A stretch of 64,000 nucleotides of DNA from a virus, in IMG/VR virus record IMGVR_UViG_3300033142_001194, positions 1-64,000 of that record; one strand, written 5' to 3'. Shown piece after piece: positions 47,359-57,750 of the stretch. How positions within the stretch are numbered: the first letter of the stretch is position 1; each line of letters begins with the position of its first letter. The notes under the pieces are model-generated. The model saw only the letters and a program-made list of their open reading frames with translations. It was not told the DNA's origin and ran no database searches. The position numbers and the translations under genes were made by a program.

Positions 47359-47590
47359 GTGTATACTCCTCTAATATTTCTAGTATTTCAGGTAACCTTT
47401 CTGGAAACTCTTTACTGATTTCCTCAACCATATTACATAAAGCTACACTTTCATATTTATCATAAAAGTATTTTAAAAGTATTTCCTCCTTCTCCTTTTC
47501 AGTAGCTTTATTAATTAAGTAATCTTTAGCAATATTATAATTAAAATATGCATGTTTTGGAGTATGTACTAAATCATTGTAAATCATCAC
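47351..47590 (-). CDS. Hypothetical helical protein, 79 aa
   Basis: Begins MMIYNDLVHTPKHAYFNYNI and has a highly charged helical second half (ATEKEKEEILLKYFYDKYES). Starts 4 bases inside the end of the ThyX gene (ATGA-type overlap). Not recognised. Confidence 0.55.
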   Translation of the reverse strand: MMIYNDLVHTPKHAYFNYNIAKDYLINKATEKEKEEILLKYFYDKYESVALCNMVEEISKEFPERLPEILEILEEYTLG

Positions 47591-49257
47591 ATCACCACGT
47601 TATCTTTAATTAACTGCCTGTACTGGATATACCCTTTAAAGTTTCCAGACCATAATCTATCCCCTCTATCACAATGTGTAATTCCTAATTCCCAATTATG
47701 AGAAGAATTATCCTGATGTACATGTTCCATAACCTTTGCACAGTGTTCAAAAGCTGATGCATGTACGGGAACACTTGTTACAAGCTTATTGTATAAATCT
47801 AAAGCTTTCTCTAAGCTATCATTTAAGTTTCTATAACTAACTTGAGCACAGCAACTAGCAGATATTTTAAGAGCATCTTCTTCAGAAAAGAATGGTCCAG
47901 TTCCTACATGACCGTATAGTAATGCACCTACTTCATCTCTAAAGTGTTCTACATATGGTGTATGCCAATCCCCTACTTGTAATTCTTCAGGTGTTGAGTC
48001 AGACATTGCTTTCTTCATTGCTCTAGCTAATTCAGCTATTTCAGGTTGTGCATGTTCATGATCTCGTAAGTAGAAGAAGTTATTAAACTCAGTTGAAGTT
48101 ACAATAACTTTTATATGTGAGAATGGTTCTACAATTCTATTAACTAATTGTTTATGTAACCCCTGCATATCTAAATCAGAAGCAGAATGCAGTGCTCTTA
48201 ATCCTGCATAGTTCCAAATGTATTTAACATTATCTAATGCTTCACCTGTTAATTCTTCACCAGCTTGCATACCAGGTTTGTTACTACCCCATTCTGAGGG
48301 TGTTACAGGGTTGTCACTGACCAATTGAAGCATCTTCTTAATAGGTATGGCTCTACTGCTTGCAGCATTGCGTGAGAAGCAATTATGCACAACAATATCG
48401 TTAGCTACAAAATTATGAAAGTCAGAAGAAACAGAAAGGTCATAAACCATTTGGGTACTGTGGAATTCTTTAGCTGTAACACGTACAGGTTTTCCTAAAA
48501 GAGTTTGACTTACCTGCCATCCCTGTTTTTTATGATAATGATTTTTATGGCACGAAGAGCAAGCAGCTACTACATTTTTAATATTGAATGCCTCTTCTGG
48601 GTGGGTGTGTACAGGTAGTATATGGTGCAATTCTAATGGCAAATCTGTTAAGCCGCATACCTTACAATAGTTATCCTGTGCTGCTACTACCTCACCTATA
48701 TGCTGCCTATTCCATGTGGAAGTCCATTTACCATTTATTATTTTATGAGCTAAAGGGTCAGATAATGTTTGTACTCCAAACCCCGCTGTAATTATAAAAT
48801 CCGAAGTTGTGATATCTTTTAACTCTTTCCAACCCATACTCGTAAGTATCAAGTGGTCATCTGTAGCTGTAATAGAGTAATCACCTGCTCTTAAGGTGAA
48901 TGTTTTCTTTTCCCCTACTTCCCAAATATCTGTTACCGTTGTATGGGTTACCTCGTTGGAGTCTTCATTAAGCATACGTAATCGCATCTTGTTTAACCTA
49001 TGCTGCATCGTCCTACCTAAAGAATCCCCATGTTTCCATTTAGTATAGAACTCTTTAATACTCATAGAGTACTTTCTAAAGTTTCCCCTACCTACCTGTA
49101 CACTAGGTAAATCAAAGCAAAGCATAGAATTTCCTGCTAAGCAGCGATGTGTCATAAACTCAGAATGTATCATCCGAGGATACTCAAGTTCTAAAGTTGT
49201 TATCCGATCTCCTTGAATGCTAATACTGTCAGCTATAATCTTTGCTGTTATTGTCAT
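47587..49257 (-). CDS. thyX: Flavin-dependent thymidylate synthase ThyX, interrupted by an intein
   Basis: The extein parts, 38 residues before and 264 after the intein, join to EFMTHR-CFSRNAASSRA, which is the ThyX signature (RHRxxSxNxxSxR-type dUMP-binding motif, here with THR). The rest shows GLQKQ-type helices (GLHKQLVNRIVEPFSHIKVIV), NFFYLRDHEHAQPEI and a C-terminal SHNWELGITHCDRGD. ThyX makes dTMP from dUMP with methylene-tetrahydrofolate and FAD. The active enzyme needs protein splicing. It lies among DNA replication genes and pairs functionally with dUTPase and class II RNR farther upstream. Confidence 0.93.
   Translation of the reverse strand: MTITAKIIADSISIQGDRITTLELEYPRMIHSEFMTHRCLAGNSMLCFDLPSVQVGRGNFRKYSMSIKEFYTKWKHGDSLGRTMQHRLNKMRLRMLNEDSNEVTHTTVTDIWEVGEKKTFTLRAGDYSITATDDHLILTSMGWKELKDITTSDFIITAGFGVQTLSDPLAHKIINGKWTSTWNRQHIGEVVAAQDNYCKVCGLTDLPLELHHILPVHTHPEEAFNIKNVVAACSSCHKNHYHKKQGWQVSQTLLGKPVRVTAKEFHSTQMVYDLSVSSDFHNFVANDIVVHNCFSRNAASSRAIPIKKMLQLVSDNPVTPSEWGSNKPGMQAGEELTGEALDNVKYIWNYAGLRALHSASDLDMQGLHKQLVNRIVEPFSHIKVIVTSTEFNNFFYLRDHEHAQPEIAELARAMKKAMSDSTPEELQVGDWHTPYVEHFRDEVGALLYGHVGTGPFFSEEDALKISASCCAQVSYRNLNDSLEKALDLYNKLVTSVPVHASAFEHCAKVMEHVHQDNSSHNWELGITHCDRGDRLWSGNFKGYIQYRQLIKDNVVM
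48382..49143 (-). mobile_element. HNH-type intein in ThyX (residues 39-292)
   Basis: The insert starts with Cys 39 (CLAGNSMLCF, block A), has a block B-like segment FTLRAGDYSITATDDHLIL (T-x-x-H) and ends with block F/G residues VYDLSV... NFVANDIVVHN, followed by Cys +1 of the extein. Between them lies an HNH endonuclease module (CKVCG... LELHHILPV... CSSCHKNH). Length is 254 residues. All splice residues (Cys 1, block B His, penultimate His, terminal Asn, Cys +1) are present, so it should be active. It interrupts the dUMP-binding motif. Confidence 0.93.
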
Positions 49258-54532: not shown

Positions 54533-54590
54533 ATATACCTCCACAGCTGTGTTAAAGAAGGTATAACCGTTACCAGTTATACCTACAATA

Positions 54591-54613: not shown

Positions 54614-55201
54614 CTATTTAACTGGACACACTCCAGAACTACATTCTTCACTTGAAATTTCTAAATCAATAATATCTGTATTAGGTAGAATAAACTCTTT
54701 AAGTGATTCTACGTATTTAGTATATCTTTCTTTAGTTACTACTTCTTGTGGTAAGTATGGGTATCCTAAATCCTCAGGAGTTTTTGTTGGATCAGCTTTA
54801 AATATAAAACTAACACCAATATAAATATCCCAATTCTCTAATAACCAGTTAATAATTTCAGGTACTTCAGGAATTTCATAACTGATAGTGTTTGAAACAT
54901 TCTGTTGACACCAATGGATTTGATATAGTTTATATCTATTGAGTTGTTCTATAGCAGTTTCCTGATTAACCTCAATATATGAATCTCCTTGCTTTACCTT
55001 AGTGAAAGGTACGTGTTCCCAGCAAACAGGAAAGGTTACTAGGATACCTTCAGGATCTAAAGGATTAATACGAACAGTATAATTTGCTTCTCTTAAGGCA
55101 GGCAGTAATGGATCATTTTTACCAAAGTTAATGTTGTTAAAAATGTATTTACCTAGTGGAGTATGTACTCCTTCAGGACATCCAAATACCTTACTTAACG
55201 T
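54614..55201 (-). CDS. nrdJ: Class II ribonucleotide reductase, exon 2 (195 codons)
   Basis: The sequence continues the exon-1 product across the predicted junction as KPSG-TLSKVFGCPEGVHTP and includes NFGKNDPLLPALREANY, GVSFIF... EDLGYPYLPQEVV and the C-terminal redox pair in CSSGVCPVK, all typical of monomeric adenosylcobalamin-dependent (RTPR-type) enzymes. A Met at 55243 in intron sequence is in frame but is not the native start. The C-terminal C-x4-C would pass electrons from thioredoxin to the active site. Confidence 0.9.
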   Translation of the reverse strand, partial: TLSKVFGCPEGVHTPLGKYIFNNINFGKNDPLLPALREANYTVRINPLDPEGILVTFPVCWEHVPFTKVKQGDSYIEVNQETAIEQLNRYKLYQIHWCQQNVSNTISYEIPEVPEIINWLLENWDIYIGVSFIFKADPTKTPEDLGYPYLPQEVVTKERYTKYVESLKEFILPNTDIIDLEISSEECSSGVCPVK

Positions 55202-56367
55202 CTCATATGTTACGGTATAACCGTTTCCGCTATACCTCTGCATGTTTCCACACAGGACAGACTATATCATTACCCTTAAAGATTCTAAGGGTACTCCCCA
55301 CTTCGGACATACTATGTCCTACTTCCTCTCGGAATAGTCGTTGAACGTTCTCCATATATGCAATCATAGTTAGGAGCTTCGCTGCTGATTATCTGTTAGT
55401 CCAAGTTGTTTTTCTACTTCTATGTATATTTCCATCATAGAGTCTGAAACTTGGCTCTTGAGACTTTCCAGCAATTCAAGGAGTACATTACATCTCATTA
55501 CTGAGAGTAAGGGCGAAATGTTTATATTATTTTGATGAACGTTACCATGACAAGAGTCACATAAACTTATTAAGTTCTCATTAGAATGTACTCTTACATC
55601 ATTATCGGAAAATAACCAATAACTTATAATATGGTGCACGTTTACAGAAAGTTCTGAGAGGTTATTACAGTATTCACATGTAGGATTAGTTAAGCGTTTA
55701 CCCTTACTTATTCTGTTCCATCCCCGTGTATAATTAATATACCTTTGTGTCCCTGTATAGAAGAAGTTTCGTTCTCCTGTTGCATATAGTGACTTTCTTT
55801 CTGTAGATGTTCTAACTTGGAAGTTACTTAGTACAAGGTTTAGGAAGTCTCCATCTAAGGGGAATACTTCATAACCTGCTGGAAGATAACATTCATTACC
55901 CATTTCCCATAATACTTCATGGGCAGATACTTGATGTGAGTTTGAATTTGCTCTAGGGTGTCCCCACATAGAAATTCTTCCTCTTTTAAGTCCTGCAGAT
56001 GTCTTATTAATTATAGGATTAGTAAGTTTAGATAATAGTGTAGATGTTAGGTAGTTATTAAACCAGTAGGCATTACCATCCCTTTCCCAATGTAGCATCC
56101 ATTTCCTAGAAGCTGCTTTAGAATGGGGGAATTTAAGCTCACGGTTACAGTAGGTAAATAACTTCTTACCTGTTACCTTACTGGTTGTAACTATCCCAAT
56201 GTATGCTAAAGCTTCTTTGTATCCATAACCCTCGTTATCAATAAACATCTGTAAAGCAGTAACACCACCTCTATTTTCTAATAATTCATCAAAATTGTAC
56301 ATAATGTCTAGTTACCCTTTATAAGATTAATAGTGGACACATTACATACTATAAACATTTATATTTC
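55202..56367 (-). mobile_element. Group I intron in the ribonucleotide reductase gene
   Basis: The 1166-base insert is bounded by exon ends ...CCTAGTGGT (last base U) and intron end ...ATATGAG (last base G), as the family demands, and removal restores KPSG-TLS in frame. Core landmarks on the minus strand: GTTCAACGACTATTCCG at about 55331-55350 (P7, 5' strand) and GATATAGTC at 55260-55268 (P7, 3' strand), with CAGCGAAGCTCC just before. The exon TAGTGG can pair with CCACTA at 56331-56336 (P1, internal guide). An HNH gene sits in the insert. Confidence 0.85.
55370..56302 (-). CDS. HNH homing endonuclease inside the intron, 310 aa
   Basis: The C-terminal half has a complete HNH module: CEYCNN (about 212), VNVHHIISYWLF (about 225) and NLISLCDSCHGNVH (about 246). 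The N-terminal half has SAHEVLWEMGNE... GYEVFPLDGDFLNL, which looks like a second, degenerate HNH_3/AP2-linked element with the key His replaced. Intron-borne endonucleases of this kind cut intron-less alleles. It starts about 65 bases into the intron and ends about 170 bases before the 3' splice site. Confidence 0.85.
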   Translation of the reverse strand: MYNFDELLENRGGVTALQMFIDNEGYGYKEALAYIGIVTTSKVTGKKLFTYCNRELKFPHSKAASRKWMLHWERDGNAYWFNNYLTSTLLSKLTNPIINKTSAGLKRGRISMWGHPRANSNSHQVSAHEVLWEMGNECYLPAGYEVFPLDGDFLNLVLSNFQVRTSTERKSLYATGERNFFYTGTQRYINYTRGWNRISKGKRLTNPTCEYCNNLSELSVNVHHIISYWLFSDNDVRVHSNENLISLCDSCHGNVHQNNINISPLLSVMRCNVLLELLESLKSQVSDSMMEIYIEVEKQLGLTDNQQRSS

Positions 56368-57750
56368 ACCACTAGGTTTTACCGTAGTAATATTTTTAGG
56401 TCTTTGTAATCCTAAACTATCTGCCATAGAAAATGCAGATGTAGTAGCTACCCTTTTCATACTATCTAAGTCGTATGCAGATAGATCAGGTCGTTGAGCA
56501 ATACCTGTTAACCCTACACCGCATAAACGTAAGAACTCGTTATTGAGGTGCCATGCTTCTTGCAATACACCATCATTTAAGTTAACCAAGGTTTGCCTGT
56601 AATTGGCTCTAGCTGCTAATCTTATTGCCTCATGTAAATCAGTAGTATTTCCAATGAATTTAGAAACATCTATTTCTACCAGATTACAAAAACTACGATT
56701 ACCTAAGAGTATTTCAGCACATGGATTTACAGTGTTCCACCAAGGTGCTCTAGCAGTAGCTGCTTCACCATTAATAAAACCCGGTTCACTACCAGAAGAA
56801 TCTACCATTAGCTGAAAGATATTTTCCAATTCCTTCTTAGATGGTTTTTTATTAAACACCAAAGAATTATTAGATTGGCTTCTTTGTGGGTTGTTAATCC
56901 AAAATTCACTTTTAGCAGTAGAAAATTCTTGCCACTCAGGTTGTCCATACTCAAATAAGGCAATCTGAGCGCTTCTACGGGACGATAATATAGTACCTAA
57001 CCAATTAATAATATCTAGTATGTCTATACGTGTAAGAAGCTCTCCTGCTCGTCTATTCATGATACATGCAATAGCTTCATAGGCTTTTGCAATAGCAATA
57101 TCTCCTGAGCTGATCCAACCATATCCTTTAAGTCTTTCACCTGCAGGACGTAATTCAGAGAAATCAAAGATTAATTCTTTTGCAGGATGTTTACCTGCTA
57201 ATAGTTTACCTATAGATTTAGCCCAAGCTTTAGCACTATCACCTACTTTAATTACCCAGATACCTGTTTCAGAATCCCAACTTTCTGAGTTATCTTCTGC
57301 ACCTCCTTTACCTGTTCGTTTTGTATGTATTACTGTTACTTTAGGTATTGGCTGTCTGAAGCCATTAAGGGTTCCTACTTTAGGTTTAAACCCTACACCA
57401 CATCCCTGCATAAGAAGCCATAAAACATCTACAACATCATATACTGTTTCAACTACTAACCCACTGCAGTTAAACATACTACTTTCTCTTGTCTTAGATA
57501 AATTAGTACCTCCTAACCAGAGTGTTCTACCACTTGTAGATACTTTTTTATCTACCATTAACTTTTTAAAAGCTTGAAGTTCTTCTAATTCCAATTCTGA
57601 AAGTTTAGACTTCTTAGCTCTTTCCCATAACCATAATTGATGGGTACGTACTCTTTCACAAATATCATTCCAAGACTCAAATACCGTCTCTTCTTTATTT
57701 ACAGGTCTTGCGTACGTTCTTCTTACAACAACTTCTGATCTTGTTTGCAT
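56368..57750 (-). CDS. nrdJ: Class II (adenosylcobalamin-dependent) ribonucleotide reductase, exon 1 (461 codons)
   Basis: The protein reduces ribonucleotides to deoxyribonucleotides. Class II features: MFNCSGLVVE (about 93, active-site Cys) and VNPCAEILLGNRSFCNLVEID (about 335-355, with the thiyl Cys loop), plus SSRRSAQIALF. It ends TTVKPSG at the predicted splice site; two further codons and a stop belong to the intron. Joined to exon 2 it gives 656 residues, close to monomeric RTPR-type enzymes. Host cobalamin uptake would be needed, as for all class II enzymes. Confidence 0.93.

What the first reader, a model, noticed from the sequence alone, without database searches (positions are those of the whole stretch)
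55202..56367. Group I intron splits class II RNR at the KPSG|TLS site
Seen: the reductase frame stops at KPSGEI, an HNH gene follows, and the reductase continues from TLSKVFG. Exon 1 ends in U and the intron ends in G; removal gives KPSG-TLS in frame. P7 strands (GACTAT and ATAGTC) and other core-like sequences are present. Known: group I introns with HNH genes are common in phage nucleotide-metabolism genes. The insertion lies in a catalytically important stretch, which is typical of homing targets.
Basis: partly seen in the sequence, partly recalled or inferred. Interest (0 to 1): 0.7.

Follow-up and report, generated by a model that had tools for sequence, protein, structure and literature searches.

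The report
Group I intron in phage reductase gene
A virus that infects bacteria carries a self-splicing RNA element with its own DNA-cutting gene inside the gene for its DNA-building-block enzyme; this is a known kind of parasite, but the exact point of insertion is one that at least three different kinds of inserted element occupy in related viruses.

Summary
On the minus strand, positions 56367-55202 (1166 nt) interrupt a 656-aa adenosylcobalamin-dependent (class II) ribonucleotide reductase between KPSG and TLS. Rfam's group I intron model matches the 3' third at 89.5 bits (E 1.5e-21; cut-off 50). P2-P9.1 can be drawn, with P7.1 and P7.2 as in subgroup IA, and P2, P7.1, P7.2, P8 and P9 covary with related introns. 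201 viral reductase loci read through this position; one of them holds an intein there. The HNH frame (310 aa) has an intact HNH motif. It lies in an enlarged P1 loop and runs on through the presumed guide sequence, P2, P3, P4 and P5, stopping in P6. [quoted passage not shown] (ii) L123 has an intein at the same codon boundary; (iii) L010, L015, L016 and L083 have group I introns with a GIY-YIG-like gene 13 nt upstream. Verdict: a real, almost certainly self-splicing intron, and a new member of a well-known kind. The extra interest is the crowded KPSG|T hotspot and the overlap of endonuclease gene and ribozyme core. Splicing and homing were not tested.

The parts
56368..57750 (-). exon 1 of class II ribonucleotide reductase (residues 1-461, ends KPSG)
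   Evidence: NCBIfam TIGR02505 RTPR 419.9 bits over a cut-off of 340; ORF
55202..56367 (-). group I intron, 1166 nt, G...G, phase 0
   Evidence: exon joining, Rfam RF00028 89.5 bits, uninterrupted homologues
56359..56367 (-). intron nt 1-9 GAA AUA UAA: in-frame stop right behind the 5' splice site
   Evidence: sequence
55370..56302 (-). HNH endonuclease ORF, 310 aa, catalytic HNH motif intact (CxxC..VHHI..ENL..CxxCHxxxH)
   Evidence: Pfam HNH residues 209-257; PHROG 144
56350..56358 (-). P1 extension, 5' strand (intron nt 10-18)
   Evidence: RNAfold of the flanks; region-level duplex energy beats shuffles, p 0.0015; inverted repeat I2
55518..55526 (-). P1 extension, 3' strand (intron nt 842-850)
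55511..55515 (-). presumed internal guide sequence CGCCC (intron nt 853-857); U(-1) faces G854, the conserved U.G wobble
   Evidence: minimum-energy fold; same place before P2 as in L009, L010, L015
55493..55506 (-). P2, UCUCA-GUAA-UGAGA
   Evidence: covaries in L009, L010, L015 with GUAA loop kept
55478..55484 (-). P3 5' strand (partner 55299-55293)
55468..55474 (-). P4 5' strand (partner 55388-55382)
55350..55376 (-). P6 (CUCC/GGAG); the HNH stop codon UAA lies directly after the 5' strand
55335..55339 (-). P7 5' strand GACUA (partner 55264-55260)
55305..55334 (-). P7.1 (UUCC-GAGA-GGAA) and P7.2 (GGACAU-AGU-AUGUCC), subgroup IA features
55272..55292 (-). P8
55238..55255 (-). P9 with GAAA tetraloop
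55214..55236 (-). P9.1 hairpin; then a tail to the terminal G at 55202
54614..55201 (-). exon 2 of the reductase (residues 462-656, from TLSKVFG to CSSGVCPVK)

Best explanation
[quoted passage not shown] Shown by sequence: core helices, exon continuity, intact HNH motif, in-frame stop at the 5' splice site, empty sites in relatives. Inferred: guanosine attacks after the U of GGU held as U.G in P1, the freed U attacks after the last G, and the exons join to encode KPSG-TLS. Also inferred: the HNH protein cuts the intron-less KPSG|TLS allele, and repair copies the intron in. The HNH frame sits in an enlarged P1 loop, held by an extended P1 stem, and runs through the presumed guide sequence, P2, P3, P4 and P5 into P6. 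Ribosomes reading it should unfold the ribozyme, so splicing and endonuclease synthesis should compete on one transcript (inferred).
For: Rfam RF00028 89.5 bits, E 1.5e-21. Core fold z -3.1, no shuffle of 100 as stable. Junction uninterrupted in homologues at up to 77% identity, including L006, a relative in a 69-kb record. ORF-less group I intron at the same junction in L009, 84.3 bits. Intact HNH. Core close to Twort, SapYZU04, Vibrio D181 and Alteromonas AD45 phage introns; at the last two an annotated homing endonuclease lies near the match.
Against: No splicing or cleavage data. The HNH protein has no close relative in phages, IMG/VR or GTDB genomes, so its target is unknown. A second exon-complementary stretch (intron nt 32-37, CCACUA, -7.9 kcal/mol) could be a rival guide, although U(-1) would then face U unless one base is bulged; the 5' splice site is the same either way.
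Confidence: 0.93

Rival explanations
1. The intron still splices, but the HNH protein no longer drives homing at this site (degenerate, or a maturase or a passenger gene).
For: No relatives with the same HNH at the same site; the ORF-less intron in L009 shows that the site can be held without an endonuclease.
Against: 310-aa frame intact, with all HNH catalytic residues; frames without function decay quickly.
Confidence: 0.2
2. An in-frame intein or a plain gene disruption instead of an intron.
For: Inteins occur in the same gene family, one at this very boundary (L123).
Against: The frame stops 9 nt into the insert, the insert length is not a multiple of 3, and a strong group I core is present.
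Confidence: 0.01
3. The reductase works as two separate polypeptides (genes in pieces) and splicing is lost.
For: Split reductases without splicing are known in phages (cited in PMC2814812 and PMC3653736).
Against: Exon 2 has no start codon of its own at the junction except an ATG inside the intron tail at 55243; P3, P4 and P7 are intact.
Confidence: 0.05

Closest known systems
Staphylococcus phage Twort group I introns (orf142 and nrdE)
   Same: Closest core by local alignment among the introns compared: 113 of 135 aligned bases identical over the 3' half with Twort orf142. Twort nrdE also has group I introns near conserved residues, one with a functional HNH endonuclease (PMC3653736).
   Different: Different host gene at orf142; nrdE is class Ib, here class II; HNH frame here lies in the P1 loop and overlaps the core.
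I-PfoP3I intron of cyanophage Pf-WMP3 (group IA2 with HNH nicking endonuclease, PMC3428280)
   Same: IA-type intron, HNH gene, conserved site of a replication gene, stop codon at or near the intron start.
   Different: Host gene is DNA polymerase; there the ORF's ribosome-binding site is in stem P6b, here the ORF starts in the P1 loop.
Phage reductase introns and inteins (T4 nrdB, SPbeta bnrdE/F, review PMC3653736)
   Same: Group I introns and inteins recur in phage reductase genes, often with homing endonucleases.
   Different: In that survey of 128 phage genomes with RNR genes, the split class II case that I read is Thermus phage phiYS40, two frames 12 nt apart; no group I intron in a phage nrdJ was seen in the passages read.

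Membership tests
Group I intron (Rfam RF00028) | covariance-model score above the curated cut-off | tested here: met
   89.5 bits against 50
Group I intron (Rfam RF00028) | P3-P8 and P4-P6 domains with P7 | tested here: met
Group I intron (Rfam RF00028) | exon 1 ends in U facing G of the guide sequence; intron ends in G | tested here: met
   U(-1).G854 in the minimum-energy fold, last base G at 55202; a rival guide exists
Group I intron (Rfam RF00028) | GTP-dependent self-splicing | not testable with these tools
   needs RNA
Subgroup IA | P7.1 and P7.2 between P7 5' strand and P3 3' strand | tested here: met
   subgroup assignment from general knowledge, IA1 and IA2 not separated
HNH homing endonuclease | HNH motif with catalytic residues | tested here: met
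   Pfam PF01844, PHROG 144
HNH homing endonuclease | cuts the intron-less site and drives intron transfer | not testable with these tools
   only empty sites shown
Class II ribonucleotide reductase (RTPR) | NCBIfam TIGR02505 above cut-off | tested here: met
   exon 1 alone 419.9 bits against 340

The most novel reading that the evidence does not exclude
[quoted passage not shown] In the HNH intron, the endonuclease frame is also the ribozyme's guide sequence, P2, P3, P4 and P5, so each transcript must either make the endonuclease or splice.
Probability: 0.4. Interest if true: 0.5.

Novelty: new member of a known kind. Interest (0 to 1): 0.4.

Why it matters
Introns and inteins are known to favour conserved sites (PMC2814812). 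Here RNA-level and protein-level parasites hold the same nucleotide boundary in close viral relatives that also include empty alleles, which makes competition between homing elements for one target testable. The overlap of endonuclease frame and ribozyme core gives a clean case for asking how splicing and endonuclease synthesis are balanced. Annotation pipelines that miss the intron would call this reductase truncated.

Tried and rejected
AlphaFold of the HNH protein without an alignment: pLDDT 33, unusable. Autorepressor operator like that of I-TevI (homing-site-like sequence before the HNH start): the match TAGTGG-ACACATTA is no better than shuffles (2842 of 3000 as good), rejected. Common descent of the two same-site introns (window and L009): the window core is closer to Twort, Vibrio D181, SapYZU04 and Alteromonas introns at other sites than to L009, so descent at the site is not shown. 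A first P1 model with guide at nt 30-37 plus a P10 (nt 25-29 AAUGU) was set aside because U(-1) faces U and exon pairing of that length is common in shuffles (44%). HNH search in GTDB genomes found nothing; in IMG/VR only the HNH domain of L005, a HEARO locus. A faint second HNH-like stretch (protein residues 123-169, phrog_1891 E 0.009) stays unproven. No paper holding the term KPSGT is listed, and the Meng 2007 and Derbyshire 1998 papers are not held, so an earlier report of this insertion site cannot be excluded.

Full report
Setting. The window is part of a 68,998-base IMG/VR virus record. The reductase, dUTPase-like, DNA polymerase and thymidylate synthase genes lie on the minus strand.

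The observation. Exon 1 (57750-56368) ends KPSG and, read on, stops after EI at intron bases 7-9. Exon 2 (55201-54614) starts TLSKVFG. Taking out 56367-55202 (1166 nt) gives one frame of 656 aa. Exon 1 alone scores 419.9 bits with the adenosylcobalamin-dependent ribonucleoside-triphosphate reductase model TIGR02505, over its cut-off. Of the viral loci fetched (some contigs were fetched more than once), 201 read across the junction (156 distinct segments), with K, P, S and G invariant and T at 99%; one of the 201, L123, is an intein case. The nearest fetched reductase is L006 (77% identical over exon 1), in a 69-kb record whose gene is uninterrupted.

What it is. Rfam's group I intron model matches 55533-55238 at 89.5 bits. 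The helices P2, P3, P4, P5, P6, P7, P7.1, P7.2, P8, P9 and P9.1 can be drawn, and the core folds better than all 100 shuffles (z -3.1). In four related introns P3, P7.1, P7.2, P8 and P9 are kept with changed bases, and P2 in three of them; P2 keeps a GUAA loop and P9 a GNRA loop. P7.1 plus P7.2 places it in subgroup IA (general knowledge). By local alignment the 3' half is nearest to Twort orf142, Vibrio D181 and SapYZU04 phage introns among those compared.

P1 and the HNH frame. The frame (56302-55370, intron nt 66-998) has an intact HNH motif. With the exon end, the first intron bases and nt 830-880 folded together, the minimum-energy structure pairs U(-1) with G854 as U.G, flanked by G-C pairs and continued by a nine-pair stem, nt 10-18 with 842-850. 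This guide sequence sits before P2 just as in L009, L010 and L015. The HNH gene would thus start in the P1 loop, and its last 49 codons would also spell the guide sequence, P2, P3 5' strand, P4, P5 and P6 5' strand. A second exon-complementary stretch at nt 32-37 pairs more strongly with the exon alone but puts U(-1) against U; I rate it as less likely, and it gives the same 5' splice site.

Who else uses this site. L009 carries a 327-nt ORF-less group I intron at exactly KPSG|TLS (84.3 bits). L123 carries an intein there...VIKPSG | CRPWYA...VKSHN | SLSKIM, with a further intein at NP|C in the same gene. L010, L015, L016 and L083 have group I introns with a reading frame resembling GIY-YIG endonucleases (my reading of the sequence, e.g. 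YCIVNN...YIG; no profile run) that split the V/I codon before KPSG, 13 nt upstream. MW202615 has an intein elsewhere, at NP|C. The KPSG-T stretch is thus a crowded target. Whether the two same-site introns share descent at the site is not settled.

How it works. Splicing by two transesterifications and homing by the HNH protein follow from established knowledge of group I introns and HNH endonucleases (PMC3984707, PMC2988022). Neither was tested. The early stop keeps reductase ribosomes out of the guide and core (inferred; Pf-WMP3's intron starts with UAA, PMC3428280). Translation of the HNH frame must pass P2-P5, so it should compete with folding (inferred). In T4, RNA structure and late promoters separate these events (PMC2988022); here no such element was shown.

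Novelty. Group I introns with HNH genes in phage reductases are well known (PMC3653736). That survey lists few split nrdJ genes, and I found no report of an intron at KPSG|T among the open papers held, which is not proof of absence. I file it as a new member of a known kind, with moderate added interest from the hotspot and the overlapping frame.

Noticed in passing
window 47587-49257 (-): A flavin-dependent thymidylate synthase (ThyX) frame holds an intein with an HNH domain between MTHR and CFSRNAASSRA (TIGR01443 intein C-terminus over its cut-off, TIGR02170 thyX below it). The same phage thus has an HNH intron and an HNH intein in two nucleotide-metabolism genes.
   Followed up: partly
window 54560-54583 and 55214-55236: Two near-identical hairpins (GGTATA...TATACC), one being P9.1 of the intron, the other just downstream of the reductase stop codon; 0.06 such patterns expected in the window.
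   Followed up: partly
L123:423-4070: Class II reductase with two inteins, at NP|C and at KPSG|SLS, the latter at the same codon boundary as the window's intron.
   Followed up: yes
L010, L015, L016, L083: Group I introns 13 nt upstream of the window's site, each with a gene resembling GIY-YIG endonucleases 3' of the core; in L016 the endonuclease-like frame has a stop near its end.
   Followed up: partly
L005:2123-2344: HEARO RNA (RF02033, 114.8 bits) beside an HNH gene in a 103-kb viral contig.
   Followed up: no
G003 222347-222649 (L216): A further group I intron elsewhere in the 306-kb viral record that holds L008 (56.1 bits).
   Followed up: no
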